Positions 3,288 through 64,000 of a stretch of 64,000 bases of DNA are shown piece after piece. Each line of letters opens with the position of its first letter. Position 1 is the first letter of the stretch. The position numbers were made by a program, and so were the translations under genes. The DNA is taken from contig NC_080422.1 in the NCBI RefSeq assembly GCF_029873635.1, positions 16,832,049 through 16,896,048 on the forward strand. The letters run 5' to 3'. The notes under the pieces are model-generated. The model was given only the letters and a program-made list of their open reading frames with translations, ran no database searches and had not been told where the DNA came from. This stretch comes from Malania oleifera (Eukaryota > Streptophyta > Magnoliopsida > Santalales > Ximeniaceae).

Positions 3288-3537
3288 TGTTATTGACCTG
3301 ATTGGTCATATCTCGTTTTGATAATGACAAATACATTGGTACTAATGTTTGCCCTGAGCTTGCATGTAGATTCACTCTACGCGTCGAATTGAAAAAGAAC
3401 GTTATATCATGATGGCGTATGATGACTCTAAGGGAGAATGTAGAATATTGTGCTTAATTTATATTTGTAATTTGTATATTATGTATTATGGATTGTAATT
3501 CAATATGGTTCGTAATAACTGCATCATGCATGATAGG
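3288..3537 (+). mobile_element. LTR-B copy 1, left part (interrupted by gypsy element)
   Basis: It starts tgttattgacc and aligns over its length with the LTR starting at 61644 (shared ggtcatatc, ttttgataatgacaaat). It resumes after the gypsy insertion at 12734. The superfamily is not identified. Confidence 0.7.
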
Positions 3538-12728: not shown

Positions 12729-12733
12729 ATAGG

Positions 12734-13939
12734 ACTGTATGCTCAGGTTGCCCTAGATTGACCTTAGGTTCCTACACACTTAGTGTATAGGACCCCACTA
12801 CACTCACATGTCATCAGAGGTAAATTTAAATTAAAGAATAGAACTCAAGCCTAAAATCATAAGGGCTTTCAAGCGACCGAACCAAGCAAATCAAATTGCC
12901 TTGGTTAACCGAACTATTGACTGGTCAAAAAGTTGACCTGACTTCGGGCGACCGACTCAAATGAACTAAGTGTCCACGGTCGACCGAACTCAAACCCTAA
13001 CTTTTCCAACAACTCGGGCGCCTGAACTTCGCGTTCAAAATACCCCCGAGTGACCAAATGTGCAAGTTCGACAGATCGAACTTGATACCAAGCGACTGAA
13101 CCTTAGACATATTGGAAAATCGCCTTGGTCAGCAGACCGAACCCTTGATCAGGCACCTGAACTTCAAATATGACTTTTTCCCATGTGTTTGTTCGGGCGA
13201 CCGAACATATAGCTTGGTCAACCAAAACTCTCGAGTTGGCCAAAATTTTACTGTTCTTAATTGGGGTTAAACAAGGTTAATTTTCTTAAACTATTTAAAA
13301 ACAAATTTAATTATTCCCTATGTATCCCCAACGATTATAATTTTGGCACTGCCTATATATATGAGTTCATTTGCTCAGATTAGTAATCAATTAACATCTT
13401 GATTAGAAAAAATACTCTCTGTATTTTTTAGAGAGCTTTTTTCCAAATACAAAGTCGATACCCTCACATACTACTATTCCTTTGATAAATCAATCCTTGT
13501 GAGAGTTCTTCGAGTGGTTATACACTATTCTCTTTGCTAGGAAACTGTCATTGTGTTGTATATTTGATTTTAGGATTGAGAGTTGAGCATAAGGTTTTTC
13601 CCCTTATTTTATCTAATAATTTTTTGTGTGGGAAAACCTTTGTAGCTAATGAGTCTTTGCATCATTATTGCAAGACTCATCAAGCTTGTGTGTTTTTTAT
13701 TGTGTAAAATATTTTTCACAAGCTTACTAATTTTTCAAATATCTTTTGAGAGAATATTTTGAGAAAATTATCTTTGAGATATTTTGAATACTCTAGTTGG
13801 AACTCTTTGAAACTTGTGGTGATTAATTAATATTAATATTTTGTTTAAAATATTGTTTTGAAAATACACTCTAGGACTTGATTGCATATTTACACCAGAT
13901 TGAGTGTTAGCACACTTTATTGGCACTAAGCATAATTAC
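12734..13939 (+). mobile_element. LTR-B copy 1, right part
   Basis: This continues the LTR that starts at 3288, after the gypsy insertion. It holds the GTCGAC motif cluster, a TATA box (ctatatatatg, about 13352-13362) and the leader with gggaaaacctttg and tgcaagactca, shared with the copies at 58752 and 61644. It stops short of the LTR 3' end and is cut by the LTR fragment at 13940. Confidence 0.65.
12872..13228 (+). promoter_or_regulatory. GTCGAC motif cluster of LTR-B copy 1
   Basis: About ten imperfect copies of (g)GTCGACCGAAC, such as cacggtcgaccgaact, spread over ~350 bases. The cluster ends ~124 bases upstream of the TATA box. A regulatory role is inferred. Confidence 0.5.
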
Positions 13940-39076: not shown

Positions 39077-40681
39077 ATTCCCAAGCGTTGGAGAAGAGTT
39101 AAACGAGGATATGTTGGAACAGGATTTTATGTATCAATAGAATTTATGAAAACCTACCAACATTGAGAGAACACAATTCAAGCCCCATTGACTTCAACAG
39201 CAGAAGTGTGCAAACCATTTCTTATAAAGCAATAAATTCAGACATTAAAAATCAACATTGAATCAAAACAACAATGAGTGAGAGCAGGAAACTATTGTTT
39301 TCTGCACTGAAGAATTGCTTACCATAAAAGAAAAACTGATTTTCAATGCTTTACTAAGTTCAGTAAAATACTTGGAAATTCTAGTGAAATTAAAGAGGTT
39401 TTCCTAGCTCACTTTGCAATTTACAAAGTAGATTTCCACCTACAATTATCTTTTAAATAATTATATTTTATAGACAATTTTTTTATTAGCTGCTCGCAAA
39501 CAATATTAAAATTTACTAGAAGATTCCATATGCCTCAGCTAAAAACATTATAGCAGTTCACAAATTCAATGAGAGTAAACAGTAATGATTTTCTCCAATT
39601 GAGTTCAATAGAGGCTGGAGAGCACCCGTTGTCAACATTTTTTGCAAGGATCAAAAACCAAATGGAAGGTCAGATAATAAAATGGAAATTCACTGCATAA
39701 AATGAAAAAAAAATAAAGGATTTTCCATTTTATGAGCACATTTTTTACTTTATTTCCGAACGTTCTGTACCATAAAGCATTGACACTCTTGCAACTTCGC
39801 ATTTACAACACAGCTAAGCCTGGCAATCATTTTTCCTTGTATTTACCCTTCATTATCATCACTCACTCTAAGGGGTACATGATTATAAAATGCATAAATC
39901 CCCGTATCTAGTTTACTTGTCGCCTGAACACATTTTACAACTCTCTATTTTCTTTTATCATACACTGCCATGTCTATTAGGTAGGGTAATTGTCCACGCA
40001 ACTCTACAACTGGAAGTATGAGACTACGAGCTAGTTGATGAAGTATGTTCTGACTAGCTGTACTAATTATGCGTCACTCCCATTATTTAACTAGCACCAT
40101 ATATCATTACTTTGATGCATAGAGCCATTTCACTTCAGAATAATAGAACGGTAGTCCCTTTGTTGATTATCCTTAATTGATATCCAACGTTCCTAACAAG
40201 TTCAAATTTTGAACACCGTATACCATTTGTGCCTTTCTAGTTGTTAATAGTCATAGTAATCATGAATTTTGAAAGCCATTAGACATTTGTTCTCCTAACT
40301 GTAATTTCGTTAGCTTTGCTCTCATCTTTTCAGCATATATAGGTAACATTATATTTCTTCCTTTTTCAGCAGTCACTTGTTAAGGGAGACATAATAATTC
40401 CAACTGTGTCAAAAGGGAAATGAACTAAAATAAATTTCTTCAAAATTTCCACTAGCATGAGCGAAAATATCCAATATGCAGTCATGAATATATCAACAAA
40501 CAATGGCACTGTAATGAAGCTGAGGTATGAGTTCATAGGATGAACAAAATCTTGCTAAAAAAAAAAAATGTATTCAAACAGTTCAGAACACACAAAATAA
40601 TGATAATAAGAATAATGTTCATGGCCGCAATCAAATCCAAACTTTCATGCATCTTGGTCCATGACATATCCCTATAAAAAT
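39077..40681. other. Region upstream of the cyclin start codon (probable leader intron)
   Basis: No gene was recognised. A candidate acceptor (ttggtag on the minus strand, about 39154) lies ~75 bases before the ATG. This would fit a 5' UTR intron reaching the exon proposed at 47738-47870. Confidence 0.35.
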
Positions 40682-41197
40682 TGTTGTGGAAATCGAATGC
40701 ACAGTGGAATAACACGATCTTACAAAGCAGCACTCAACAGTGAATAATACAGAAAAAAAATCATGCAGATTATATGAAAGCAATAACAAAGACACAAAGA
40801 ATTACGTAGTTCGGCAATGCCTACATCCACGAAAGCAATCGGCAATGATTTCATACTATCTTGCGTCAAAGACACGAACAACATTACAAATACAACTTAT
40901 ACAACGTATATATAAAGGTTTCCCGAAGGCTTTCCCTCCAAACCCCAACCAACCTAATGTCCCAATTCAAATTTGAAAATCTGCATTGGGTTCCCAAGCC
41001 AAACCATCGACGGTTTGCAGACATGCTGTCGACGGTTTAATATTGAGAACAAAACCTCTTTGAATTCTGGACCAAACCGTCAACGAATATAGGACAACTA
41101 TCGACAATTTACTCAGCAAACACCAGCATACCGTTTTTCACTATATTTTCACTTTGTGCATGCCTTCCACTCACAATATGAACCACGTATCACAACA
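40682..41197 (-). repeat. 3' LTR of the Copia element
   Basis: 516 bases. Read on the minus strand, a GTCGAC palindrome cluster (41003-41112) is followed ~86 bases later by a TATA stretch (40907-40917). Confidence 0.9.
41003..41112 (-). promoter_or_regulatory. GTCGAC palindrome cluster of the Copia LTR
   Basis: Sites of the form aaaccatcgacggttt, tgtcgacggttt and aaaccgtcaacga. The full palindrome is ACCGTCGACGGT. The position is upstream of the LTR TATA box. Promoter repeats at this position are known for Tnt1 (its BI/BII boxes), but the present motif is not one I can equate with them. Confidence 0.5.
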
Positions 41198-44100
41198 ATC
41201 TCCACCTTGGCGAATATACGCCCCTTAGAAAAAAACTGAAAACATAAAACCCACTGTTCCACCTTAGGACAATAGGTTGGCACCGTTTCCCTTCTAGCAG
41301 CTGGAGACATTCAGCAAGTCCAAACAATGCTTGAACTTATCTGTGGTAACCAGCTTCATCAAGATATCTGCCACGTTCTCAAAAGTGTGAACTTTATCAA
41401 GCACAAGTTCACCTGAAGAAATCAACTCCCGAATCCTGTGGAACCTTACATCTATATGTTTGGCCCTTGCATGATACACTTGATTCTTCGCCAAATAGAT
41501 GGCACTCTGACTATCACAACGCTGCTCAACTACACCTTACCGTATGCCCAGCTCCTTGACTAAACCAGTAAGCCACAATGCTTCCTTAGCAGCTTCGGCA
41601 ACTTCCATATACTCCGACTCAGTTGTTGATAATGCCACCAGAGATTGTACCATGGACCTCCAAAAAATAGGTCCTCCCACAAGGATAAACACATACCCTG
41701 TTGTAAACCTCCTATCATCAAGATCCCCTGCATAATATGCATCAACAAATCCCACAATTGACGGATTACTCTGTTGCCGAATATGAAGTCATAGTGAAAA
41801 GTACCCCGTAAGTATTTGAAAATCTATTTTACGACATCCCAATTGTGTCTACTCGGATTTGAAAGAAACTTACTCACCACAATGACTGCATATGTCAGGT
41901 CCAATCTTATACATACCATAGCATAAATTAAACACCGCATAGGACTAGCATGAGGGACCTTTGACATGTCCCGGATATCATCATCCGTCCTTGGGCATTG
42001 AGTGGCAAACAAGTTAAAGTGATTTTCTAATGGTGTACTTACCAGTTTTGCATCAGCCGTACTAAACCTTTCCAACACCTTCTTCATATAATCGCCCTGA
42101 GATCATCACAATCTCCCTAAAGTTCTGTCCCGACAAATCTCCATCCCAAAGATCTTCTTGGTTACACCAAGATTTTCAAGTCAAACTCTTTATTCAACAA
42201 AGTCTTCAACTGATTTACCTCAATTATGTCCTTCGCAGCAATTAGCATGTCATCAACATAGAGCAACAAGAAAATGAGAGAACCATCATCAAGATTCTTT
42301 ACATACACACAGCAATCATACTCACACCTCCTATAGCCTATCTGAATCATATAGGAATCAAAACGTTTGTACCATTGACTCGAAGATTGTTTCCGTCCGT
42401 AAAGTGACTTCTTCAATTTACAAACCAAATGCTCCTATCCGGGTTGATTGAACCCTTCTGGTTGTGCCATATAGATCTGCTCTTCCAAATCACCATGGAG
42501 AAATGTTGTCTTCACATCCATTTGTTCCAAATGTATATCATAATGTGCAACTAATCCCAACACTATGCTAATGGAAGTGTGTCTGACCACAGGTGAGAAG
42601 ATTTCATCATAATCTACTCCTTTCTTTTATAAGTATCCCTTTGCCACTAACCGTGCATTGAATTTTTCTCCTTCCTTTTCTGAAATTGCTTCTTTCTTCC
42701 AATATATACACTTGCAACCTATAGCCCTCTTCTCATCTAGAAGCTCCACCAAATCCCAAGTCTGGTTCTTATGCTACAACTCCATTTTCTCCATCATAGC
42801 ACCCATCCATCTACTTTTCTCCCGGCCGTGCACTACCTCTTGAAAAGTAGTTGGATCCTTGCAACAGGTAATAAAAACATAAAATACCAAATCATCAAAT
42901 CTATACCTAGACGGTAGTCTGATAGTGCGTCAGGATCTCCGTATAGGAATACCGTCAACCTGCTAGTTCCCAAGCTATAACTCCCTACAATTTGGGGACT
43001 GTTATCATTACCCTGAATTTCTAACTCCACCTACATAACATGCTCATCTCTACTCCAGTTTTCTGACTTCTATCTATCTTCATCATCTTCTTGAGTACGC
43101 TTCACCATAGCTTTCTCATCGAAAACTATATCTCTACTGATCACCACCTTGTTTGTCATTGGATCCCACAGCTTGAACCCTTTCACACCTTTCTGATACC
43201 CCAAAAAAATACAACGTCTAGACTTTGCGTCAAGTTTCGATCTCTCCTCACTAAAAAAGTGCACATAAGCTAGACAATTGAATACTCTCAAACTGGAGTA
43301 GTCTACCGCATTACCTATCCATACCTCCTGTGCAACTTTCCCCTCTAGTGATGCCCTTGGTGATCAATTTACCAAGAAACATGTCATACTAACTACCTCA
43401 ACCCAGAAGTTCTTCACTAGCCCTGCATTCAACCTGAGACACTGAACTCTCTTAGCTAGAGTTCGGTTCATCCTTTCTACCACACCATTTTGTTGTGGTG
43501 TCCGGCGAACTGTGAAATGTCTCTTTATGCCCTACTACTCACAAAACTTCATGAACCTCAAAGCAGCGTACTCGATCCCATTGTCTAACCTATGGCATTT
43601 AATTCTCCTCCCGATCTGGTTTTCCACCTTAACTTTCCACAATTTAAACCTGGAAAACGTCTTTGACTTGTGCCGCATGAAGTACACCCAAACCTTCTGT
43701 GAGTAATTATCGATGAAACTCACAAATTACATATGCCTTCTGTGAGTAATTATCGATGAAACTCACAAATTACGTATGTCCACCCCATGATGCTACTCTC
43801 ACCCACCCCCAAACATCCGAATGAATGTAGTCAAGAATACCTTCCGTCTTATGAGTGGTTGTTTTGAACTGCACCCTGTTCTACTTCCAAATAAAACATA
43901 ACTTGCAGAATTTTAACTTGCATATTTTCATACCCTTTAAGAATTTCCTCTTATGAAGTTCCTTCACCCTATGCTCACCCATATGCCCTAACCACATATG
44001 CCACAAAACAGTATTATCAAACTCTGAATCTACAGCTGCAGCTCCACCTACAACTGTAGTGCCCAGCAGGGCATATATGTTTCTTGCTAACTTCTGCCCT

Positions 44101-45310
44101 TTTTCATCACCGTTAGAACCCCTTTCCAAACCTTCATAATCCCACTTTCTAACTTGCAACTAAATCCGTTACAATCCAAAGTGTCCAATGAAATTAAACT
44201 CTTTCGTAGATCCAATATGTGTCTTACATCACATAAGGTTCTCACAGCACCATCAAACAAATTAATTCTTACATTTCCTATTCCAATTATTATACATGAA
44301 ACATCATTACCCATCAAAACGAAACCAGATTTAACCGACCTATAGGTGCTAAACCATTTTTTATTTGGTGTCATGTGATAAGAACACGCCGAGTCTAGGA
44401 TCCATGAGTCCGTGAGGCGATTCGAACCCGATGAAATTGAAAGGATATCACCATCACTACTTTCTGAATTTTCTTATTCAACTACATTCGCTGATTTTGA
44501 AGAACCCTCTTTATTTTAAGCATTCCCCTTCTTCCATTTTGGATACTCCGGTTTTACGTGCTCCTTTTTACCACACTTAAAACACCGGATATCCTTCTTC
44601 TTTTTGGACTGCGATCGAGATTTATTGTGAGTCGATCCATTCCTGAATTTTCCTCTCCCACATTCATGGTTATCCTTCACCACAAGTCCTTCACCATGTG
44701 AAATTTCATTGCTAACCTTCTTTCTTTGATGAAGGCCTAGCAATGCGCTTGCTACCTCTTCTAAATTTAGGGTTTTTTCCCCCCATGTAGTCATAACCAA
44801 GTTTTCATACGTGTGAGATGCGGGTAGGGAATTCAATAGCATCAGCGCCTTGTCATCTTCCTTGAATTTCACATCAACCCGCATTGAATCACTTATGATT
44901 TAATTGAATGCATTGATGTGTTGGTTCAAATCCGAACCTTCTACCATCTTAAGCCAATATAACTTTTGCTTAAGGAATAGTTTATTCGTAAGAGACTTAG
45001 ACATATACCGGCTTTCAAGTTTCTACCAAACAGCTGCCGAAGAATCCTTGTCCATGACGTGATACAGCACGTCATCTGCCAAACACAATCTAATAGTTGT
45101 CATAGCCTTTGCTTCCAATTCCTTCCAATTTATGTCATTCATGCCTTCCGGTTGAACTTCGTATAAGGCCTTCACCATACCTTGTTGTACTAACAGATCC
45201 TTCACCCTTCTATGCCATAAACCGAAGTTTCTGGTTCCATCAAACTTGACAACATCAAACTTTGCAAAAGAAGTTTCAAAGATCATTACAATAATGCTTT
45301 GATACCAATT

Positions 45311-45786
45311 TGTTGTGGAAATCAAATGCACGGCGGAATAACACGATCTTACAACGCAGCACTCAACGGTGAATAATACAGAAACAACACAATCACGTAG
45401 ATTATATGAAACCATTAACAAAGACACAAAGAATTATGTGGTTCGGCAATGCCTATATCCACGGAAGCAATCGGCAATGATTTCTTACTATCTTGTGTCA
45501 AAGGCACGAACAACATTACAAATACAATATATACAACGTATATATATACAGGTTTCCCAAAGGCTTTCCCTCCAAACCCCAACCAACCTAATTTCCCAAT
45601 TCAAATTTGAAAATCTACGTTGGGTTCCCGAGCCAAAGCAAAACCTCTCTGAATTATGGACCAAACCTTCGATGAATACAGGGCAACCGTCGACGGTTAC
45701 CTCAACAAACACCAACATACTGTTTTTCACTATGTTTTCACTTTGTGCATGCCTTCCACTCACAATATGAGCCACATATCACAACA
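45311..45786 (-). repeat. 5' LTR of the Copia element
   Basis: 476 bases. Palindrome sites lie at about 45660-45700 and a TATA stretch at about 45536-45550, downstream on the minus strand. Confidence 0.9.
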
Positions 45787-47005
45787 AAAATGCATAACAT
45801 GAATGAAAGCATGTTAGTGGATAACTAAAAAAATTGCACTTATAACATGAATGTATGCATGTTAGTACACAATCACAAACTAATGCTCATAAGAATGTTA
45901 GCATTTCAAGCATGTTCTATTAGCTAAATTGTTGAATGATGCATAGCAATGCATCATCCATGATCTGCAACATAGTTATAACTTTTCAGGATATTCTGTT
46001 TCCTCAGTTGGCTTGCAGGTGCTCAGACCTGCAAGAGCTCTGGTTGACTCAATTAGATTCTCCACTGCTCACAACCCTCCTACCCTTGGTTTCAGATTGT
46101 AGATGGTGCTCAGACATTCAAGAAGATCATCTTGTTTGATGAAGGTCTTTGGCTGTTCTTTTGGCATGATGTTCAGCATGATTCATACCTCTTTAAAAAA
46201 AAAAAAAAACAAACTTCCAAGGTTGTGTAGGTTAACTGCAGAAAAATGTGACAGTTGGAGGTTGTTTGGTAATTGAAGGAGATCAAAATGGCGGGGCTAG
46301 AGGTTCAAAAGGAATTTGAGAGAAACTGAACAGGAGTAATTCTCAAATTTGTTTTAAATACAGTGTAGCAGGTGTGACGGAAGAGGATAAAATTGCCTGG
46401 GTCTACCCGAAGGATTGAAGTTTCTTAGTGAAGTCTAGTTTTTCTTGGATTAAAAGAAGGGAACGGGAAATAGGAGTAAACTTCCAAGGGAACCAAGATG
46501 ACTTTACTTAGACTGGAGGCTACTCGGAAAATACTTAAAGATTGATAATCTTATGAAAAGAGGTGTTTAGTAGTAGCTGCTCCTCTTGGAAGGAAGATTG
46601 TGAAGCTGTAAATCACATTCTCTCTTACACTAACCCTATGTTTGAAGAGACCTTGGATTTGGATTTGGTTTTTTATTGAATTTGAATGAGAAGTAATATA
46701 AAATTATATTGAAATTTATCCAAATCTGCGCAAATCCATATCCAAGGTCCAAAGTCCATGCTCCCAAATGCAGCATAAATGAATTTGAATGTTATGGTTC
46801 TTGGTCCATGTCTTTGTGGGAATATACTAGAGTGCCATTCCTCTAGCTCTGTTTTGGATCATGATATATCTCTACTAAAAAAGAAAAAAAAAAATGCAAA
46901 ACATGAATGTACGCATGTCAGTGTAGAACAGAAAAAAAAAAAAAAAAAATGCACTAATAACAAAAGAATTCTAATGAGTGTGTGTGGAAAATAATGCCCA
47001 TAAGA
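45787..47005. repeat. ~120-bp direct repeats flanking LINE debris
   Basis: A segment with aaaaatgca, acatgaatg, gcatgttagtg, tgcac...ataac and tgctcataag lies at about 45787-45905. It recurs, diverged, at about 46885-47005. The LINE debris lies between the copies. Confidence 0.45.
45990..46890 (+). pseudogene. LINE (L1-type) 3'-end debris
   Basis: Around 46370-46640 the plus strand encodes broken stretches resembling the C-terminal zinc-binding domain (zf-RVT) of plant L1 reverse transcriptases: DNLMKRGV, then in another frame SSWKEDCEAVNHILSY. Several stops and frameshifts interrupt it. A poly(A) run at about 46193-46210 follows a segment typical of a LINE tail, and a second A-rich run lies near 46880, so two 5'-truncated insertions may be present. 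Confidence 0.5.
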
Positions 47006-51377: not shown

Positions 51378-53563
51378 TGTAACGACCTCAAAATTCTCAT
51401 CATTTTTTTAAAAAATATATATACAATAAACATTCCTACGTAGCGGAAACATAAATCATATAACCATTATACATAAATTGTACAATACCAGAATCCAAAA
51501 TATATAAACCATACAAAAATGTCCCTCCAGTGACATCTATCCAAAAACATACACCGCTCTGACAAAAACTCACCCTATAACCTAGGTGATCTGAGCTACA
51601 CTCTATCCGCGAGCCTGATCTGCTCGCCTCACTGGCTCACTTGAAAAATGTTAAGATAATGGGGTGAGTCGACGCTCAGTAAGTGGAAATATGCTATTAC
51701 TAGTGTGTGGCAACCAAGTTAAGAATACATTTTAAAATAATGACTGAACTGTAATGCAATAAATCATCTATAAATCATATCTTTCAAACATATCTTTCTT
51801 TCTCTATTTAAATCATACTGTATCATCTGTTTTCTACTTTTCATACTGATATTATATCATACCATACTCATCATATACTGTAAAACTGTATACATACATA
51901 TAACTGTACTTATTCCCTGGGACTCTGTACGTCATGATTTGACCCCTCATGACAGGGTTGTGCGGCCTGTAGGCGGGACTCTATCTAGTCGGCCCTCTAG
52001 ATAAGTCAATATATTCTACACTACCTCAGCCCGGCCAAACTGCATCCTCTCCTAGGCGCGGGACTGGCTTCTACCTCGTCTAACCGGCCCCCTCTACCCA
52101 GCGTACTGGAGAGCTACATCCTCTCCGAGCACGATTAGACGGTACCCACACACTATCTGAGATGTGTGGTTGCACTCTATCTGAATATAGCAACGGTATC
52201 GTGCTCTGTAATCTGTATCTGTACTATGTCTGACTATAATCTTTCCATAGGGATCTGATACTATATACATATATACATATATATATTCTTTTACTGTTTT
52301 CGCCATGTTCTAAAATTACCATAATGCTATCTTTATGTACTGTATAAATATACTATAACTCTGTATACTATATCCGTAGCATCTTAATGCTACCTCTGTA
52401 TCTCTGTCTGTATGATCTAGCTATATACTCTGTCTATTATGGTAATAGGATACATGACATGCTATAATTCTGCATATACTGTTCTGTATAAAGTTGTAAT
52501 ATAAAATACTGATCTGAGTATCTGTATACATGTATATGTATATATATGTATATATCTATTTCATGGAACTATTCATATAAAAGTTGTATATGCATGTACA
52601 TTTCTCTGTGAATATAAATCTATATTTGTATATTCTGTGTAACCCTTATACTGGAAAAGTTATATAAACTGTATATATTGTTATTAATTGTGTACTTAGT
52701 ATAGTATGATACATCACAAAACTATATAAATTCTCTTATCTCATGAAAATGTACTCAGGCCACATGAACATTTAACTCATATTCTGTATAAATTAGGTAA
52801 TAAATTGATATGAATATATGTCTATAAAATCTCTGAAAACTTTATAAAAATTCCTAGCATAGCATATTTCCCTTACCTCAACTTTGAGAAGCCCCTATAA
52901 AAATCTGGCTGTATACCCGCAGGATTCCTAACCCAACATCCTGAAAACGCAATCTTCCAGAACAAAATATCAGTATTTCTTAGTTTACATCATTTTCTAT
53001 AACTGTCAGGAGGTCAAAAACTCAATAAAAGACCTTACCCTGAATTTGGGATGAAATCCAACTTCGTTTCCTAGACGATTCGCTCCAACAAACTTGAAGA
53101 GAACTCCGCCAAGAGCGTCGTGGTAGCTTCGGATCGTCGATCCGGCAACTGGTGGGGGGGCCGAAATCGAAGAGAGAAGGGAGAGAGAGAGTTGTAGGAG
53201 AGAGAGAGGCGCTAGAAATGAGATAAAATCCTGATTTTCAAATATTTATACTGCCAGATTCGTCGACGAGAAACGTCACCTCGTCGACGAGTCAATTCGT
53301 CAACAAAGCCCTGTATTCGTCGACGAAATTCAGAGCAGTCGGAAACCTCTCTCGGTATTTTCTCATCGACGAAGCCCTGTATTTATCGACAAAATTTCTT
53401 AACCACTCGTCGACGAAGCCCTATATTCTTCGACGAGTCCTTGTAATTTCTTGAATTTATTTTATTCTCCAAAATGCAATGTCGTCGACGGCCTCCTTCT
53501 GTTTCTGTATCTATTTTCTCTCCCTCTTATTATTAAAATGCTATCATTCTTCGGGTCACTACA
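51378..53563 (-). mobile_element. Solo LTR, family LTR-G2 (gypsy-like), copy 1
   Basis: A 2.19-kb LTR, on the minus strand TGTAGTGACCCG...GGTCGTTACA, with a perfect 5-bp target duplication TATAC (51373-51377 and 53564-53568). No internal region, so it is a solo LTR left by LTR-LTR recombination. Its layout (TATA, GA/CT-rich leader, segment with cgtcgatccgg, then the gagcgtcgactcacccca segment) parallels the Tekay-type LTR at 3538. Confidence 0.85.
53258..53491 (-). promoter_or_regulatory. GTCGAC palindrome cluster of LTR-G2 copy 1
   Basis: Nine sites of the TCGTCGACGA type in 234 bases (e.g. cctcgtcgacgagtc). Read on the minus strand, the cluster ends 8 bases before TATAAATATT (53241-53250). 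Confidence 0.55.
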
Positions 53564-53937
53564 TATACTAACTAGATTGATGCTAATAAGAATAGGCATA
53601 TGGAACTATCTATGGATTGGGGCATTGATTATTAATGGATCGTTGGATATCCGTCAAATAAAACCTAAAATCTACTAACCGAATCGTTTAGGAACGGATA
53701 CAAAATTTTAAAATCATATCTCACTCATTTAATGTGTGAATCGATTATGAGTTAATATAAGAGGATTAGACATGATTTAAATAAACAAATTTTTATCCAT
53801 TTTTCTAGGTCTAGGTAGATCTTGTCAAGGAGGTTGAACCAAAAGATATTCTTAGTGTAGAGACTCGAAGAATTACAGTAATTAAATAATAAAACAAATG
53901 AGAGAAAAGGAATTTTAAAAAGGGGTTTCAGCAGGGT

Positions 53938-54111
53938 CTCATCGACGAGTATAAAAGTGCTCATCAACGAGTAAGGCTTTTGGGCTCGTCGACGGGGATG
54001 CGTGTCTCATCAACGAGAAATTATCGAGTGGACTGTTTCCAAAGCCTGAAACTCATCGACGAGCTCCCTTCATTAACTCGTCAACGAGGTGACATGTCTC
54101 GTCAACGAGAC
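53938..54111 (+). promoter_or_regulatory. GTCGAC palindrome cluster of LTR-G2 copy 2
   Basis: At least seven sites of the type ctcatcgacgag / ctcgtcaacgag in 174 bases. The cluster ends 16 bases before the TATA box at 54128. Confidence 0.55.
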
Positions 54112-54604
54112 CATGTGGACAGCACTCTATATATAGCCCCAAAACGGATTTTGAGCGAGGAAATTTCATTTTTATCAATTTTTCTCTCTCTGTACATAGT
54201 TTCTCTCACTTCTTTCTAGGTTTCCAGCTTCGTCTCTCCCCAATTCAATGATCAGGAGCTACCACAGTGATTCTGGGGAGATTCTCTACAACATAGCCGG
54301 AGGAAAATGTTGATTTGAAAAGTTTGGGAACCATCCCAAAATCAGGGTAAATAGATTATTTGGATATTTCCAGTAATACCAAGCTTATTTGAGCCTAGAT
54401 TTTGTATTATATAAGAATATACTGGTATTTTTTGGAATAAAATCAGGGTGTTATATTCTTAGGGTTAGAGTGTTTTGGGACCCTGCAAGAATGGGTTGAG
54501 GACCTTAATGGATATCTTCTCAAAAGCCCAAATAAATAATAAGTAGTTTATAATTCAGAAGATAGAAGAATGAAGAATATTATGGGTATTTAGTTGATTG
54601 ACAG

Positions 54605-54946
54605 TATTAATGTCTGTCCAATCCCACGTCGTCTCTGTGAGCAATTCCAAAACCAATATAAGATCCTCTTAGCTCTCTCTCCTTAACACCTAGGTTTTGA
54701 GGATGAGTTCTCTAACATGGTATCAGAGCTGGGCCTTGGGCTTCTTAGCTCCTCCATGGGTTGGACTTCTCCTGACCTCATTTCTCCCCATGAGCTCTCA
54801 TCGCCTCATTTCAACCATGGGCTCGAGGGGGGGTATTAATGTCCGTCCAATCCCATATCGTCTCTGTGAGCAGTTCCAAAGCCAGTATAAAATCCTCTTA
54901 GCTCTTTCGCCTTAACACCTAGGTTTTAAGGATGAGTTCTTTAACA
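54605..54946 (+). mobile_element. Complete TRIM (terminal-repeat retrotransposon in miniature)
   Basis: Two LTRs of 113 bases (54605-54717 and 54834-54946) are ~90% identical or better. A primer-binding site for initiator tRNA-Met (TGGTATCAGAGC, 54718-54729) directly follows the first, and a polypurine tract (gaggggggg) precedes the second. The internal domain is ~116 bases and non-coding. The flanking 5-bp repeats gacag / aacag look like a slightly diverged target duplication. It looks structurally whole and depends on another element's enzymes by nature. Confidence 0.85.
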
Positions 54947-56441
54947 AACAGGATATATATATAATATTTTCAAGATTATGAAATTATAAATGCCAGAGGT
55001 GTAATTTAGAACATTAGTGGGAGAGCTTAATTAGTAGGTAAGGGAAATATGCTATGCTAGCAAAATCAGGAATTTTTATCAATATTAGTTATAATATGTG
55101 AATATGAATACAGGGTGTGATTTTGAATATGTCAGAAAATAGATTTATACAGATTTTATTAAATGTGTTTTAATCAACATGTGGCATGTTTTTGTGATTA
55201 TTCATTACATAATTTATACAGTTTTCGAAATATCATAAAACATACATGTTTTGCAGAATTATGAATTTCCAGTTTACATACAAATAGACATTTTTCAGAA
55301 TATTCAGAAACATGATTTATAATATTTTTAGAATACCATGATTTCAGAATCATAACACTCAGATATTCAAATAATCAGTTAGATATTCAGATATACAGAT
55401 ATTTAGATATTCAGTCAGTTATTCAGATATTCAGATTATTCGGACCAGTTTTACTGTGTTATGGGTATTTCAAAATCATGGCAAATCAGTAAGATAATTA
55501 TAAATATTAGTATTATATAATATCAGACCCTCATGAACTACTTAGTCAGTATCAGCCAGTAGAGCATGGTACTGTAGCTATTTTCAGTTCAGAGTGCAAC
55601 CACATAGCTCAGATAGTATGTGAATTTTCAGCAGTCGATCGTGCCTATGTTATGGACAGGCTCCCTGTCAGTTAGGGTTTAGGAGGTCGTTGACTTTCGG
55701 AGTTCAGTTGACTTATCCTAGTCAGCGAGCCAGTGATAGGTCCCGCCTGCAGGCCGCACAACCCTATCATGAGGGGTTAAATCATGACATTCTTCTAGGG
55801 TATTGTGACAGTTATCTATATGTTATTACAATTTTACAGAATAGTAGTAAAGATACTATATTTCTAGAAGTATGAATAAGTAAAACATAAATATTACAAT
55901 TGCATCTTAAATTATGTTAGGTGTATGTTGTGCAGTATATTATTCTATCAATTTTACAAAATTTAGTAATATATCAGTTATTATTGTGTAACTCAGTTGC
56001 CACACACTAGCAATAGCATATTTTGTCTTACTGAGCGTTGTCTCATCCTAGTGATTTAACATTTTTCAGGTGATCCAACTAAGCGAGTAGATCAGGCTCG
56101 TAGATAGAAGAGACTACAGCACTGCCCTGTCTGTAGGGTGAGTATTTTTGGGAAGTCACTTTTTGTGTAGTCACTAGGTCTAGGTGAGGGCATTTTGGGA
56201 ATGGCCATGTATGCATATTTTGAAAAATTCTGACACTTTGGTATTGCATATATTGATGTGATTATATGTATTCTGCTTTTCGCTGCATAGATAGTTTATT
56301 GAGTTCCACGTTCCATGGTCCCTATCTGGTCCGTGATGATGGTTTGGTTTATATTAGAAGGTATCAGAGCAGTGAAATTTTACAGTTTATATATATAAAG
56401 AAAGAAAAAAATAATACGGCATGAAAAATCAGGTCGTTACA

Positions 56442-56817
56442 CTTATTATAAAGAATACATCGAGATTAGACCATATTCTTTTATTATAATACAAATATTG
56501 AAAGTTCTTCCCATATTTTTTGTCTTAATTTTTAATGCATAAAAATTGTGGTTATAGATTTCTATCACGCCTGTTGGTACATCTTTATCTCTCAACTCTT
56601 TCCCTTTTATTTCAAGTTCTTTACTCTAAACCATTAGGTCAATGGCTCTTGTGAAGAATTAGGCAGCAAAGAATGCCACCACTACCTTCATTGCATCTAG
56701 ATCTACAAAAGGTGATGTTAACTCTACCAAGAACCCAATAAATGAAGGTTTGATCACTTGTAGCAAATAAGAGTCCCTAGATCGCAAGCTGTTCAAGAAA
56801 TCAAAGTAATCAAGACT
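56442..56817. other. Spacer between LTR elements
   Basis: No gene or element was recognised. Confidence 0.4.
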
Positions 56818-57017
56818 TGTTGTGATATGTGGCTCATATACTGAGTGGAACGTATGTACAAAGAGAATATGGTGGAAATCAGAATGTTAGTATGCAGGAG
56901 GAAACCATCGATATTTTCCCTCTAACTGTTGACGGTTTGGCCCAGTAAAGTGAAACAATCAACGGTTCTGGTGTTATTGCTTTGATTGCTTGCTTGTGGT
57001 ATTAAACCATCGACGGT
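56818..57017 (+). mobile_element. Copia (Tork type) LTR fragment, plus orientation
   Basis: It begins tgttgtgatatgtggctcat, the reverse complement of the end of the Copia LTRs here, and carries GTCGAC-type sites (ctgttgacggttt, aaccatcgacggtg). It is cut off at about 57017 by the next repeat. Confidence 0.65.
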
Positions 57018-57789
57018 GTCGCGACATTCCCAGATGCGAACTTGGGATAAGAAAATGGTGTGATTTAAAAAAAAAAATGATATTTTCGTGGAAAACCAAT
57101 GTGTATAGAGTCGCCACTAACCTTTTAGTGTTGTTAGAATACTTGATTACTATCCAATTAAGGGTAGAATCGGTCTGCGTTACCAAATTCGGGCTCAGGA
57201 GTTCGGTTACCCGAGCTAGGGGAAGGTATTAGCACCCCCTACGTGCCCGTTCTTACGAACAGTACCTAATTAATCAAAAACTATCTCAAAATAAATTTAA
57301 TAAGATTTAGAAAACTACTACCTATCAAATCAAATAAAATGTACAAAATAGATATAGTATAAGTATTCTCTCATGACCAGGGCATATCGTACTCCGAAGA
57401 GCTTATGCCCCCCTTTTAAATCGCCGGGATTGGAAAATCAAGAAAATAATTTGAAAAAAATACACTCCTGAGATTTGAAAATTTTGTAAGGTTTTTCTAA
57501 GTATGAAAAATAATATTTTGGGATGTTTTGGAATTTATTTGGGATAGAAAAGAGTGTCAAGAATGATTTCCAAGTCAAAATATTTTTCTTGATTTTTTCT
57601 CTATTTTTCTGAAATTTTTTTTCACATTTTTTCATATTTTTCCTGAACTTTGAAATAACAAAAAGAAAATTAAAATAAAATAATGGAAATCAAGTCCCAA
57701 AAACATTTTTAGATTTTTCTCCTAATTTTTCTAATTTTTAGAATTTTTGTGAATTTTTATGATTTTTCCTAGGTACAAAAAGTAATTTC
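57018..57789. repeat. Probable LTR-derived repeat, family unassigned
   Basis: The segment with gagtcgccacta, gttcggttacccgag and ggaaggtattagcaccccc is a kind of sequence I associate with abundant plant LTRs. The rest, to 57789, is A/T-rich and uninformative. Confidence 0.35.
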
Positions 57790-58751
57790 CTAACCTAGAG
57801 AAATCTTTTGGATTTTTGGTAGCTTCTCATTTCTGCTCCACTTTATCCTGTGATATTGTAAGTCTCTTGAGTTAGAACTCCCTACACTCTTACCCCGAGT
57901 CTCCAACTCCACCTGCACAACATGCTTATTGCTGCTACTGCAGCTTTCTAGAACTCGTTTCTCTTCATATACCTGAGTACGTTGTCTCATGGCTTTAATA
58001 CCTAAAATCATGTCTCCCCCAATCGCCACCCTATTTTTCATTGGATCACCCAACTTGAACCCACTTTTCTTATATACCATAAAGATGCACTTTCTAGATA
58101 TCACACCAAGCCTAGATCCCACATCACTAGAAATATGCATGACTGGACTTCTAAAGTCTATCGCATAACCCGTCCAAGCCTCTCCTACAACTCTTCCGTC
58201 TAGTGATTCCTTTGGCGATCGATTAACTGAGAAACACCTCATACTCGCTGACTTCACCAAGAATTCCCTTGCAATTCCTACATACACCATGCCCTGCTCA
58301 CAAAGCTCCTTGAATGCCAGCGTACTCAGTAACAAAATCTGACCTGAGGAACTCTCTCCTAGTTTGGTAGTCCACCTCAGCCACAAGTTACACCTGGAAA
58401 ATAACTCCAACTTGTGTTGCATGAGATTCTCCTAGACCTTCTGTGATAGGCAATGCACTTGTCACCTCTTCCAAATTCAGGCTTTCTTTGCCCCATGTCA
58501 GAGTTGTAACCAAGTTCTCATATGTATGAGACGCTAGGAAGGAATTCAGTAGCATAAATGCCTTGTATTCCTCCTCAAACTTTACATCAACACGCATCAA
58601 ATCACTCACAATCTGGTTGAATACATTGATATGTTGGTTCAAATCATAACCCTCCATCATCTTAAGTCAATACATCATTTGCTTAAGAAATAGTTTATTC
58701 GATAAAGACTTAGACATATAACAACTTTCTAGTTTACGCCAAACTACTGTG

Positions 58752-60762
58752 TTGGAATTGGTTTATTCCCAAGAGGGGGGTGAATTGGAAATTTAAGACT
58801 TTCTTAGGTCAAATTCAAATCACAATCAGTATTTCCCAACCTAGAGTCTTTCTAAGTATTAACCAATTCAGCAGAAATCAAACTGAGCATAAATATAAAG
58901 CAATTAAAGCAATCTTGGTATTTCTGAAACATTCACAGTAATTAAAATAACAATATGCAAGTGCGTAAATTTAAGTGCAAAAATTTAAAGTTGACACAAG
59001 ATATGTTATCGGGGTTCAGCCAATACTGCCTAAGTCCCTGCCCCAGCTTGCAAGCTTGAGGATTACCACTATTGCTCACTTAACGGGTGGAGCAGCACCG
59101 ATTATAATCAGGTCAAATTACCAGGGTTGGCCTCAACCTTTACATACAATCTTTCTGGACTAGATTATCACTCTTTCAGGCCACGCTTGAAATACAACAG
59201 ATAATCAACACAATTTCATGTACAATTTTAATGCTTCTAACACAAGCAGATTTGTACCAGTATAACCAATGTACTTCAATATGATAGGATTTAAAAGCTT
59301 GGTGAAGATATATAAAACTACTCTCAATATAATGTCAATATGCAATCAAAGTGTGAGAGTGAGTTTAGCAAAGTTTCTTTGAAACAATATATATAAATAT
59401 ATCAACCACAAATAAGGTTTCAAATATATTCAAGAGTATAATCAAATATCTTAAAAAACATTTCCAAAAGTTTAAGCACAAGAGATATTTAGCAAACAAG
59501 CTTGTCAAATATATTTTTTACAAAACACAAGACAAGTTCAAGAGTCTTGCAATAAACATGCAAAGACTCACAAGCTAATAAAAGTTCCCCACAAAAAGGA
59601 TTTATGAATTAAATCTATAGGGAAAAACTTTTCTGCTTAACTCTCAATAAAATCAGCAAGCAATCAACACAATGAGAGTATAAGCTTATATGTATAATCT
59701 CTAGAAACACTCACAAAGGATATCTTACGATAGGAATGAGTGAGAGTAGGTTTTTGAAGCTTCTATGAGAGAAATAAGTTTTTCAAATTCTAGAGAATAT
59801 TTTCCTAATGATGTTTGCTAATAGGTTGCTAATCAAACCAAATGAGGGAGTATATATAAACACTCTAAAAAATATAACCGTTCGGGACTCATTCGGTATT
59901 TTTGAGAAATTTTAAGTACGATTAATAAAAAATAACCCTCGTTTTAGCCTCGGTAAAAATCAAGCAACCCGAGAGTTTCGGTCAACCGTATTGAGGGTCC
60001 GATCAACCACTTTATGAGTTTCGGTCAACCGTGGAGTTTTTCAACATAAAAATATGGTCGACCGTATTCAAGCGATTTTGAATCATCCGAGGTTCGGTCA
60101 ACTAAGGCAGGTTCGGTTGACCATTTTCTAAGGTTCGGTCGACTGAGTAAATTTTGTACTAGTGGTTCGGTCGATCAGGTCGTTGGGAGTCAGCCACGTG
60201 TCAGTTTGGTCGACTGTGGAGTGTAAGTTCATTTCAAAATGGTCGACCGAATAGTCAACAAGTTGACTCTGGTAAGTTTGGCCGACCGAAGCTTCTATAT
60301 AGCTTCGGGTTTGGTCGATTGAAACCACTTAAAGTGTGCATTTAAGTCCTGATTTTCATTTGAAGTCTCCCCTTGTTCACATAAGTATAACTTCTGAGTT
60401 ATAGGGGATTTGTCATGTGGCGTGTAGGGACCTATGGTCAGTTAATGGTTTAGGCTTTTCAAGTACGTATAAAAACCTGGCATCGGTCGACCTGTCTCAT
60501 CTAAGGTCATTTGAGCTTTATAGTTCCTACCATGCATGTCATGCATTAATTATTATAGACCTTGGATTAATATTACAGACCTGAATGAATTGATAAAAAA
60601 TACAACAATAAAAAATTTGGTCTTCAAATTCTTCGAGTCTCCATATACCACTATATGATATTGCCAAGTCATGCAAGACTGATCATACACACAAACTCAC
60701 CAAACATTAAATACCAAGCCATTTATCATAATCAAAATGGGATATGACCTATAAGGTCAACA
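58752..60762 (-). mobile_element. Solo LTR-B, copy 2
   Basis: A 2.01-kb LTR on the minus strand. It begins TGTTGACCTTATAGGTC and ends ...CACCCCCCTCTTGGGAA...CCAATTCCAACA. Flanks tactg / tgctg are a near-perfect 5-bp target duplication, and Copia gag sequence continues on both sides. This copy shows the full length of the family. Confidence 0.8.
59979..60322 (-). promoter_or_regulatory. GTCGAC motif cluster of LTR-B copy 2
   Basis: About ten sites, such as ttcggtcgactgag, ggtcgaccgaat and ttcggtcaaccg. Read on the minus strand, the cluster ends ~119 bases before a TATA stretch (59851-59860). Confidence 0.5.
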
Positions 60763-61643
60763 TGCTGCCAGAGAATCCTCATCCATGACGTGATACAACA
60801 CATCATCAGCTAAACACAATCAGATGGTTGATACCGCCTTTGCCTCAAATTCATTCCAACTTGCTTCATTCATGCTTTTCGATTGAATTCCGTGTAAGGC
60901 CTTCACCATGCCTTGCTGCACTAAGAGATCCTTCACCCTTCTCTGCCACAAACTGAAAATCTTGGTTCCATCAAACTTGACAATGTCAAATTTCGCAAAT
61001 GAAGATCCACAGGCCATTACAACAATGCTCTGATACCAATTTGTTGTGAAAAATGAATTGCACATGGGACTATATTTGTATGTAGGATCAAACACACAAT
61101 GCAGTAATCAATGATGAATATACAGAACAATCTACAACCACAACAAGTATATGAAAGCAATAACAACATCAAGAATTACGTGGTTTGGCAATGCCTACAT
61201 TCACGGGAGCAAGCTACAAAGATTCACTATCTTCTTGTCCTAATTACATGAACAATACATGAACCTCTCAATTCTCTTCAATCATTGTCTACAAATACAT
61301 CTAATATGACATATAAATAGAGTTCCCAAAGGTTTTTCCTCCAAACCCCAACCATATTAATGTCCCCACTTTCAAAATTTTAAATTTCCGTTGGGTATCT
61401 CGAGCCAAACTATCGATAGCTTAGGCCAAACCGTCGATAGTTTTAGATAGAATGCAAATTGTCTTAATTCAAATGCCAAATCATCGACAGTTATGACCAA
61501 TCTGTCAACGGCTTCCCTGCTGCTCCTCAACACTTTGATTTTTCATCAAGTTTTCTCCCTTATGCATGCATTCCACTCAGTATATGAGTCATATATCATA
61601 ATAAATCTCTTCACTTTCCTATTTCAAAAATGCATGTTATATG

Positions 61644-63481
61644 TGTTGACCTTATAGGTCATATCCCATTTTGATAATGACAAATATCTTGGTATCTTAC
61701 CTGTGCCTTGATTTTGTAAATAGGACCATACTTTGCACGCAAGGGTAAGGACACAGTAGAGGCCATGAAGAACGCAATGTTCACATTATATGGTGGCGTT
61801 TGAAGAAGCAAAGGAAATGAAGACCAAATAATTTTAAATCGTATTTGCTATTTAATTCATTTGGGTCTATTATAATTTTGGTCAGCAATAATTAATGCAT
61901 CACATACATAATAGGTTGAATAAGCTCAAGAGACCATAGTTTGACCCATAGGAACCAATACTCCTAAGATAAAATGTCACAGCTTATTCACACAGGGTTG
62001 AAAAAGTTTAAGGGCCAAAATGGATTTTTCAAAGACTTCGGTCGACTGACGCCAGTTTTTTTGGGCTTAATTTAAAAGCCTAAGACTTAGACTAACATTA
62101 GGTCCCCATAAACACTTCATGAAAAATCTCCTATAACTTAAAAGTTATACCATTAGTTACAGGGGTGAATTCTAATAAAAATCAGGACCTAAAATAATCT
62201 TTGAAAGGGCCCTGGTCGATTGAACCCATCGAGTTATACTCAGCTGGGTCGATTGAACCTTTGTCGGCTGAAAAAAAACTTAGCCACGGTTGACCGAACC
62301 TGTGACAGTATAAATGCCACGATCGACCGAACTGTTCGGAAGTCAACATTTTGACTTCGTGCGGTTGACCGTTCTAAAATGAATGTATTGCCTTAGGTCA
62401 ACCGAACTAAAACGTGTTTGACCCCCAACCGTTCATCTGACCAAATGTATAGTTCATTTTAGCCACGGTCGACCGAACCTAGTTGAGTAACCGACCACCT
62501 TTGTCTTGGTTGACCGAACCCACGAAGGGGGTTCAAAATCGCTTTGAGACCATTGGCCATATTTGCAGTTCAAAAGTGCCACGGTCGACCAAACTTAGGA
62601 AAGTGGTCAACCAAACCTTGAATACGGTCAACCAAACCTCTCGGGTTGCCAAATTTTTTACTGTAGTAAAACGTGGTTAAACTGGGTTATTTTTAGTTAA
62701 ACCTTTTTTAAACATTTCCAAAAATACCCATTGAATCTCAAACGGTTATAATTTTTTAAATATCTATATATACCCTTTCATTTGTCCTGATTAGGAGAGA
62801 TTAGCAAGCATAATTAGCAAAAATCTTTTGAATTTCCAAATACTCAATTTTCCTTATACAAGCTAAAAATCTCATTCTTATTCATCCTTCTTGTTAATAT
62901 CTTTTGGTAAGAGTGTTTTAAAGATTACCCATATAAGTTTACATTCTCATAGTCTTTGTTTGATATTGATTTTATTGAGAGTAAGCTTGAGTTTTCCCTT
63001 GTGATTTAATTCATAAGTCTTCTTTGGGAAAACTCTTTAGGGCTTGTGAGTCTTGCATTCTTGTTGCAAGTTCAGGGGTTTGTGTAGTGCTATAGTGAAA
63101 AATGTTTTTAACAAGCTAAATCCAAATATCTCTCATACTTATTTGAAAAATTATTTTTGAGAGCTTGTACTCTTGAGATCTTTGAGTTTACAACTTATGA
63201 TTGGTACATATATACATATCTTGACTCAAAGATTCATTCGTAACACACTCTCACATATTACTAGATATATTGACATTATCTTGAAAGTAGGTATATTAAA
63301 CTTCATTGAGCTTATAATTCCTATTATATTGAAGTGCATTGATTGTATTGGTACATATTTGCTTATTGGAGAAGCATTGATATTGTACACAAAAATATAT
63401 ACTATTTATCTATTATATTCTAGGTGTGGCTTGAGGGGGTGTTGATCTAACCTGTAAGGATTGGTAGAAAAGGTTAGGGTC
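61644..63481 (+). mobile_element. LTR-B copy 3 (3' part not seen)
   Basis: It starts tgttgaccttataggtc, the inverted counterpart of copy 2. It contains the GTCGAC cluster, a TATA box (ctatatatac, 62764-62773) and the leader with gggaaaactcttt and gtgagtcttgcat. The terminal part is not reached before LTR-G2 copy 3 begins at 63482. Confidence 0.7.
62037..62640 (+). promoter_or_regulatory. GTCGAC motif cluster of LTR-B copy 3
   Basis: More than ten sites, including cacggtcgaccgaacct and gatcgaccgaactg. The cluster ends ~124 bases upstream of the TATA box at 62764. Confidence 0.5.
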
Positions 63482-63561
63482 TGTAGTGACCCGAAGAATA
63501 ATAGAATTTTAATCATAAGGGGGAGAGAAAATGGATACAGAAACAGAAGGAGGCCGTAGAC

Positions 63562-63812
63562 TTCATCAACGACATTACATTTTGAAGATAATATTAAATA
63601 ATAAAAATTTCAGAAATTGCTAGACTTCGTCGACGAACACAAGGTTTTGTTGACGAAGGTCTTCAGAATTTCATCGATGAACACAGGGCTTCGTTAACGA
63701 GAAAATACCAAGAGAGGGTCTAGGGCGGTCTAAATTTCGTCGACGAATACATGACTTCGTTGACAAATTTTGTGAAGGACTCGTCGACGAGGTGATGTGT
63801 CTCATCGACGAA
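63562..63812 (+). promoter_or_regulatory. GTCGAC palindrome cluster of LTR-G2 copy 3
   Basis: Nine sites in 251 bases (e.g. cttcgtcgacgaac, ctcgtcgacgagg, ctcatcgacgaat). The cluster ends 8 bases before the TATA box. Confidence 0.55.
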
Positions 63813-63870
63813 TCCGGAAGTATAAAAATGGGGAAAATTGGGATTTCGTCATTTCTCTCGCCGCTCTCTC

Positions 63871-63960
63871 TCTCTCTCCTCTCTCTCTCTCTCCTACGAC
63901 TCTCTCTCCTCTCTCTCTCTCTCCTACGACTCTCTCTCCTCTCTCTCTCTCTCCTACGAC
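63871..63960. repeat. 30-bp minisatellite, three exact units
   Basis: Three identical CT-rich 30-base units, each ending ctcctacgac, sit in the leader of LTR-G2 copy 3. The long Arg/Glu-rich open frame on the other strand is a by-product. Confidence 0.95.
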
Positions 63961-64000
63961 TCTCTCTCCCTTCTCTCTTCGTTTTCGGCCCCACCAGTCG

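What the first reader, a model, noticed from the sequence alone, without database searches (positions are those of the whole stretch)
53258..63812. Three different LTR families carry GTCGAC-centred palindrome clusters just upstream of their TATA boxes
Seen directly: LTR-G2 (TCGTCGACGA, up to 9 sites), LTR-B (GGTCGACCGAAC, ~10 sites) and Tork Copia (ACCGTCGACGGT) have different termini and bodies. Each still holds a dense cluster centred on the same GTCGAC core. The distance from cluster to TATA is nearly constant within a family: 8, 16 and 8 bases in LTR-G2; ~124, ~119 and ~124 in LTR-B; ~85-115 in Copia. Known: plant LTR promoters can carry repeated activator boxes, as in Tnt1. Inference: unrelated elements have converged on, or exchanged, a promoter-proximal site for one host factor, or one that forms cruciforms. 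Each family keeps its own flanks, which argues against simple copying.
Basis: partly seen in the sequence, partly recalled or inferred. Interest (0 to 1): 0.78.

Follow-up and report, generated by a model that had tools for sequence, protein, structure and literature searches.

The report
Shared palindrome arrays in retrotransposon promoters
In this plant genome several unrelated kinds of retrotransposon carry arrays of short palindromes built on the same GTCGAC core just upstream of their promoter TATA boxes; one kind was already known for such arrays, the others were not found described, and the arrays look like binding sites for host proteins.

Summary
In the window GTCGAC occurs 23 times against 3.15 expected. 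Box arrays end 9-19 bp (LTR-G2), 120-130 bp (LTR-B) and 89 bp (best Copia LTR) upstream of TATA. In the 1.49 Gb genome TCGTCGACGA occurs 132,361 times; a palindrome of the same composition and CpG count, ACGTCGACGT, 129 times. The U3s of the three families show no similarity to each other. Boxes are better conserved than the rest of U3, and their CpG losses are mostly C-to-T/G-to-A. Spacers beside boxes are near random in G2 and slightly above random in LTR-B.

LTR-B is a Sirevirus-type Copia LTR whose box, CGGTCGACCG, equals the repeated motif published for a grape Sirevirus: that part is known. Not found described: the same core in chromovirus-like Gypsy and classical Copia LTRs; an identical 14-bp box in both superfamilies; and sister Gypsy elements with whole arrays of different flank type (five sequences). 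Best reading: arrays of binding sites for host transcription factors, kept in active elements and decaying by CpG deamination after insertion. Binding and expression are untested; a dsRNA/siRNA role is a live rival.

The parts
51378..53563 (-). LTR-G2 copy 1, solo LTR (TGTAGTGACCC...GGTCGTTACA), TSD GTATA
53260..53491 (-). G2 copy 1 box array (TC type, 8 boxes), 9 bp from TATA
53245..53250 (-). TATA box of G2 copy 1
53856..56441 (+). LTR-G2 copy 2, related solo LTR (flanks CTTAG/CTTAT)
53939..54108 (+). G2 copy 2 box array (7 boxes), 19 bp from TATA
54128..54135 (+). TATA box of G2 copy 2
63482..64000 (+). LTR-G2 copy 3, start of an LTR that runs past the window end; inserted in LTR-B copy 2
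63563..63811 (+). G2 copy 3 box array (9 boxes), 9 bp from TATA
63821..63828 (+). TATA box of G2 copy 3
58750..60762 (-). LTR-B copy 1, Sirevirus-type LTR (TGTTGACC...CCAACA) inserted in Copia gag
58773..58782 (-). C-rich signal near the LTR 3' end, as in Sireviruses
59979..60288 (-). LTR-B copy 1 box array (GG type, 9 boxes), 120 bp from TATA
59851..59858 (-). TATA box of LTR-B copy 1
61644..63481 (+). LTR-B copy 2, interrupted by G2 copy 3
62287..62634 (+). LTR-B copy 2 box array (8 boxes), 130 bp from TATA
62765..62772 (+). TATA box of LTR-B copy 2
12868..13907 (+). LTR-B fragment with degenerate GG-type boxes (3 within 2 mismatches)
40678..41198 (-). Copia LTR with 3 CC-type boxes (41004-41086), 89 bp from TATA at 40907
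45307..45787 (-). Copia LTR with a perfect AACCGTCGACGGTT (45685)
2765..3341 (-). Copia LTR with degenerate CC-type boxes (3102, 3152, 3172)
61039..61643 (-). Copia LTR with CC-type boxes (61429, 61479)
56817..57060 (+). Copia LTR fragment with CC-type boxes (56924, 56954, 57005)

Best explanation
The clusters are cis-regulatory arrays in the LTR promoters (U3) of several unrelated retrotransposon lineages: tandem boxes, each a 10-16 bp palindrome with a GTCGAC core, placed upstream of the TATA box. I think each box is a binding site for a dimeric host DNA-binding protein, with the flank type (TC, GG or CC) setting which member of a protein family binds. Active elements keep the boxes; after insertion the methylated CpGs deaminate, giving GTTGAC/GTCAAC forms. 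Shown by sequence: the arrays, their place, their genome-wide excess, higher conservation than the rest of U3, mostly CpG-transition decay, unrelated U3s, flank switching in one Gypsy clade. Inferred: protein binding, the host origin of the protein, dimer recognition, an activating role.
For: TCGTCGACGA 132,361 places against 129 for the composition- and CpG-matched ACGTCGACGT. TCGTCGACGA followed within 1-30 bp by TATAWA: 24,809 places against 80 for the pattern read backwards; of the 100 listed rows 34 have a gap of exactly 9 bp, 21 of 30 bp, 22 of 18-22 bp, 10 of 11-12 bp. Gap near constant by family: 9 bp in 7 of 15 TC clusters, 118-130 bp in 7 GG arrays. Box sites better conserved than the rest of U3 in 15 of 15 reference rows at <=1 mismatch; at CpG 75.6 v 62.9% (GG) and 83.2 v 69.5% (TC); box CpG mismatches are C-to-T/G-to-A in 266 of 286 (GG) and 160 of 187 (TC), against 344 of 608 and 117 of 154 outside boxes. 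Spacers beside boxes near random in 5 TC arrays, against copying of whole units. A random 200 kb sample (20 of 100 drawn stretches) ranks GTCGAC as the most enriched palindrome after AT repeats: 43 v 9.06, TCGTCGACGA 11 v 0.01. U3 CpG observed/expected 1.3-1.8 in G2 v 0.56 in the window.
Against: No binding, expression, methylation or small-RNA data. No known protein for the site was identified. Boxes have three CpGs and fold well as RNA, so structural roles fit too. Helical phasing is only suggestive for GG and CC and absent for TC. Right-hand spacers in 7 GG arrays are above random (0.33-0.41 v 0.27, SD 0.03-0.04). The aligner can lay boxes on non-homologous boxes, which inflates; with perfect boxes only, GG box CpGs beat outside CpGs in 3 of the 4 rows that have any, TC in 6 of 7. 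The transversion control TCGTGGACGA never ran. Search counts are lower bounds by the tool's own note.
Confidence: 0.6

Rival explanations
1. Structural or silencing role: the arrays act as RNA (U3 lies at the 3' end of the genomic RNA) or cruciform DNA; inter-box pairing makes dsRNA that feeds siRNA and RNA-directed DNA methylation. Boxes are kept for another reason or are a by-product of host recognition.
For: Three arrays fold better than dinucleotide shuffles: z -4.57, -5.77, -2.21 (0 of 200, 0 of 100, 4 of 200 shuffles as good). In maize Sireviruses palindrome clusters are small-RNA hotspots (passages in PMC5311732 and PMC10760457). High CpG and deamination pattern show methylation here (inferred).
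Against: Folding does not need one fixed core in unrelated families, nor a gap of exactly 9 bp to TATA, nor better conservation than spacers. Selection should lose such structure unless it pays, as PMC10760457 argues.
Confidence: 0.2
2. Self-encoded or lineage-specific anti-silencing target sites, like VANC targets of VANDAL transposons: arrays mark the element for a demethylating or anti-silencing protein, and flank changes are specificity changes.
For: Arrays of one flank type (114 of 118 box hits in 16 clusters fit the cluster's own type), whole-array flank difference between sister Gypsy elements, short motif in tandem in noncoding DNA as described for VANC targets (passages in PMC10398659).
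Against: No extra gene was sought in full-length elements here; LTR elements with the same core belong to two superfamilies, which argues for a host factor.
Confidence: 0.08
3. Mutational by-product: boxes spread by slippage or tandem duplication and persist without function.
For: TC arrays show a 45-46 bp double unit (20-21 and 24-25 bp alternating); GG right spacers somewhat alike.
Against: Spacers mostly unlike while boxes agree, conservation at CpG sites that should decay fastest, constant gap to TATA, same core in unrelated families.
Confidence: 0.07
4. Exchange of U3 pieces between families by recombination rather than convergence.
For: CC boxes in both Gypsy and Copia LTRs; L029 and L030 share U3 similarity although L030's internal 3' end is closer to L015, as U3 exchange within the Gypsy clade would give.
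Against: No U3 similarity between G2, LTR-B and Copia beyond boxes; only five Gypsy sequences in the tree.
Confidence: 0.05

Closest known systems
Sirevirus repeated motifs (RM boxes; Bousios et al. 2010, PMC2829016, passages and section 9 seen)
   Same: Palindromic, CpG-rich boxes in many copies in the LTR upstream of TATA; the published grape (Vitis) Sirevirus motif CGGTCGACCG, 10 copies in its 3' LTR, equals the LTR-B box.
   Different: The paper calls the motif Sirevirus-specific and absent from classical Copia elements and did not treat Gypsy. Here the core sits in Gypsy and classical Copia LTRs as well. Its boxes share a CGG-CCG signature; TC boxes (TCGTCGACGA) do not. [quoted passage not shown] here the gap is 9, about 20 or 118-130 bp.
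Palindrome clusters of maize Sirevirus LTRs (Bousios et al. 2016, paper not held; seen as cited in PMC5311732 and PMC10760457)
   Same: Clusters in the LTR cis-region, small-RNA hotspots, strong predicted structure.
   Different: Other core (CACCGGACNNNGTCCGGTG). PMC10760457 reports that palindrome also as the top motif of Helitron structured regions, so sharing across superfamilies has been noted before.
VANC target motifs of VANDAL transposons (PMC10398659, passages)
   Same: Short motif in tandem in noncoding DNA; sister families differ in motif across the whole array.
   Different: DNA transposons that encode the binding protein; no such protein sought or known here.
Tnt1 B-boxes (recalled; named in the finding and in PMC2829016)
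   Same: Repeated, partly symmetric activator boxes in a plant LTR promoter.
   Different: Few boxes, other sequence, one family.

Membership tests
Sirevirus (for LTR-B) | C-rich integrase signal about 21 bp before the LTR 3' end | tested here: met
   CACCCCCCTCTTGG at 58782 (-), close to the LTR end at 58750
Sirevirus (for LTR-B) | LTR/internal junction CA-ATTGG-TATCAGAGC | tested here: met
   Not in the window copies, which look solo; met exactly in L009 at 7544, whose LTR aligns to LTR-B at 76% over 266 nt and is followed by a Copia gag/protease hit. L026 has ATTCG instead of ATTGG; it was not shown to be LTR-B.
Sirevirus (for LTR-B) | Several AGGGGGAG tracts before the 3' LTR, then AT/TG | tested here: inconclusive
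   No LTR-B copy held here was shown to be a 3' LTR; the LTR-B start in L020 has no such tract
Sirevirus (for LTR-B) | At least 8 palindromic CGG-CCG boxes upstream of TATA | tested here: met
   9 and 8 boxes in the two main copies, 3 in the fragment
Chromovirus-type Ty3/Gypsy, Tekay-like (for LTR-G2) | Gypsy RT-RNaseH-integrase with chromodomain between such LTRs | tested here: inconclusive
   G2 copies in the window are solo. TC boxes lie in an LTR directly after a Gypsy integrase C-terminus in L015 (63-68% protein identity to the window Gypsy). Pfam Chromo scores 21.3 against a cut-off of 25.1 in the window Gypsy and is not reported for the L015 piece. The lineage name Tekay is recalled.
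   LTRs of about 0.5 kb; the exact pattern search for the C-rich signal gave no hit in them; Pfam Retrotran_gag_2 at 23.7 bits, below its cut-off of 27. Tork was not tested.
VANC-like anti-silencing system | Element encodes the protein that binds the array | not tested

The most novel reading that the evidence does not exclude
One host protein family that reads GTCGAC-centred palindromes has been recruited independently by Gypsy chromoviruses, Sireviruses and classical Copia elements of one plant, with the flanking bases acting as a code for paralogues; whole arrays change flank together when an element switches regulator, and more than 130,000 sites of one type now spread this regulator's binding sites through the genome.
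Probability: 0.35. Interest if true: 0.82.

Novelty: new variant of a known kind. Interest (0 to 1): 0.62.

Why it matters
If the boxes bind a host factor, they explain how unrelated retrotransposons came to share one promoter design and give a direct handle (a 10-16 bp bait) for finding that factor. They also imply that the bulk of this plant's sites for it lie in transposons: one exact 10-mer per 11 kb. Flank switching between sister elements would be a countable case of regulator change in retrotransposons. It also shows that the repeated motif described as Sirevirus-specific is not confined to Sireviruses in this genome.

Tried and rejected
Shared U3 by recombination between G2, LTR-B and Copia: rejected, no similarity. 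Chance: rejected. Tandem duplication of whole units as the only cause: disfavoured. Helical phasing as a firm claim: not kept. Periodograms peak at 10.3-10.5 bp for GG (68 spacings, 11 clusters) and CC (22 spacings, 9 clusters), but TC alternates 20-21 and 24-25 bp and does not peak there; with distinct spacing values only, p = 0.026 (GG) and 0.003 (CC), and copies are not independent. One merged cluster in L002 put GG spacings into the TC set. L020 as proof that LTR-B belongs to a Copia element: dropped, because its LTR-B start has no polypurine tract and may be a nested solo LTR. W-box idea: deaminated cores (GTTGAC/GTCAAC, 63,985 places for one changed centre with intact TC arms) hold the WRKY core TTGAC, but the intact core is commoner; kept only as a lead (motif recalled). 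Paper searches for LTR palindromes outside Sireviruses and for W-boxes and a plant factor for GTCGAC gave none that I recognised in the listings. Rfam and tRNA scans: nothing.

Rows dropped before counts: L004, L005, L007 (overlap L003, L006); L026 (TC set) and L002 (GG set) though both were. A hand-typed gap list had slips and was replaced. The random stretches come only from the first 55 Mb of contigs C1-C12.
Full report
What was checked. The window is G000:C6:16832049-16896048 of an unnamed 1.494 Gb genome of 510 contigs, a plant by its retroelements. GTCGAC occurs 23 times (shuffle mean 3.15). Self-alignment, LTR termini and reading of 52800-64000 place the sites in LTR-G2 (51378-53563 minus, 53856-56441 plus, from 63482 plus), LTR-B (58750-60762 minus, 61644-63481 plus, a fragment near 13 kb) and Copia LTRs. 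Shuffle tests of 11 boxed stretches: 9 reached by 0 of 500 shuffles, two single-box Copia stretches by 24 and 12 of 500; the 2,070-bp Gypsy LTR control has no box.

Genome-wide scale. TCGTCGACGA: 132,361 places; ACGTCGACGT, same bases and CpGs: 129. GGTCGACCGAAC: 18,398 + 18,723 against 49 + 33 read backwards (the backwards control lacks CpG, so it is a weak control). Two GGTCGACC 10-40 bp apart: 38,494 against 4 (same weakness). ACCGTCGACGGT: 2,868 against 43; the 16-mer AAACCGTCGACGGTTT: 2,219 against 1. TCGTCGACGA 1-30 bp before TATAWA: 12,233 + 12,576 against 47 + 33. The tool says counts of repeats are lower bounds. Clusters of at least 4 boxes: 5 in the window and 11 in 8 of the 20 random stretches.

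Anatomy. Three flank types share the core: TC (TCGTCGACGA), GG (CGGTCGACCG), CC (CCGTCGACGG, in full AAACCGTCGACGGTTT). Arrays are nearly pure: 114 of 118 box hits in 16 clusters fit the cluster's main type. Gaps to TATA: 9 bp in 7 of 15 TC clusters and 19-21 bp in 3; 118-130 bp in 7 GG arrays. In the 100 listed rows the gap is 9 bp in 34, 30 bp in 21, 18-22 bp in 22, 11-12 bp in 10. CpG observed/expected is 1.28-1.84 in G2 U3s, 0.87-1.04 in LTR-B, 0.76-0.99 in Copia, 0.56 in the window.

Conservation and decay. Each U3 in turn served as reference for 8 GG and 7 TC copies. With boxes at <=1 mismatch, other copies match the reference at box CpGs in 75.6% (GG) and 83.2% (TC), against 62.9% and 69.5% at other CpGs; box sites win in 15 of 15 references, CpG and non-CpG. 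With perfect boxes only, GG CpGs win in 3 of the 4 rows that have such boxes and TC in 6 of 7. Mismatches at box CpGs are C-to-T or G-to-A in 266 of 286 (GG) and 160 of 187 (TC); outside boxes 344 of 608 and 117 of 154. So boxes are held and mostly lost by CpG deamination. The aligner may lay a box on a non-homologous box, which would inflate this. In 12 arrays boxes agree with each other at 0.74-0.88 (they were selected for that), while spacers beside them agree at 0.26-0.37 in TC (random 0.27-0.31) and 0.26-0.41 in GG (random 0.27), GG right-hand spacers being above random.

What the families are. LTR-B has the Sirevirus C-rich signal near its 3' end, and its relative L009 has the exact Sirevirus junction CA-ATTGG-TATCAGAGC followed by a Copia gag/protease match. 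Its box equals the motif published for a grape Sirevirus (PMC2829016, section 9). LTR-G2 is solo in the window; TC boxes lie in an LTR right after a Gypsy integrase C-terminus in L015, so I call G2 chromovirus-like, with the chromodomain below Pfam's cut-off. The Copia LTRs are short and lack the Sirevirus signal; their lineage was not tested.

Cross-cutting box types. The exact 14-mer AACCGTCGACGGTT stands in the window's Copia LTR (45685) and in Gypsy 3' LTRs L029 and L030. In a tree of integrase 3' ends of five Gypsy sequences, L015 (TC boxes) and L030 (CC boxes) are sisters (80.8% identity, support 93), L029 (CC) lies outside (69%); 1000 of 1000 column bootstraps put L015 closer to L030 than L029 is. 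L029 and L030 share U3 similarity, L015 and L030 show none. So a whole array changed flank, or a U3 was exchanged, within one Gypsy clade. Five sequences are few.

Mechanism. I favour sites for host DNA-binding proteins: palindromes fit a dimer, the place and constant gap fit a promoter-proximal activator, and conservation fits use by active elements. Spacing is suggestive of helical phasing in GG and CC but not in TC. The main rival, structure and small RNAs, has support from folding and from maize (PMC5311732, PMC10760457, passages seen). The resemblance to VANC target arrays, which evolve as whole arrays (PMC10398659, passages), is in behaviour, not membership.

Novelty. Palindrome boxes in Sirevirus LTRs are known, and PMC10760457 reports one maize palindrome in both Copia and Helitron regions, so sharing between superfamilies is not without precedent. 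In the held library I found no report of GTCGAC boxes in Gypsy or classical Copia LTRs; subscription papers are mostly not held. Hence: new variant of a known kind.

Noticed in passing
L001, L002, L003, L006, L019, L020 and window 62180-62790, 59840-60380: GG arrays also hold a well-kept inverted pair GTCAAC-N-GTTGAC-like motif (such as GGTCAACAAGTTGACC), which resembles two W-boxes (recalled); seen in the alignment and in strings.
   Followed up: no
L013 near 1127, L015 near 8694, window 54108-54128: TC arrays with a gap of about 20 bp often have CACGTGG or a near variant between the last box and TATA.
   Followed up: no
L032:1138-1876: CC boxes lie between a primer binding site and gag, that is inside the element's leader and not in U3.
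   Followed up: no
window 58502-63812: Nested insertions: LTR-B in Copia gag, LTR-B beside a Copia LTR, G2 inside LTR-B.
   Followed up: partly
window 2765-3341 and 61039-61694: Two Copia LTR copies are followed by the same LTR-B-like start within one alignment, as if the junction had been copied or hit twice.
   Followed up: no
window 3538-12730: A Gypsy element on the minus strand with 2.05 kb LTRs 97% identical and no GTCGAC boxes.
   Followed up: partly
window 35289-35771: Tandem duplication of 242 bp at 93% identity.
   Followed up: no
window 23883-24422 and 38213-39133, minus: Open frames that look like pieces of host genes (a glycerate-kinase-like and a cyclin-like protein, by recall only).
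   Followed up: no
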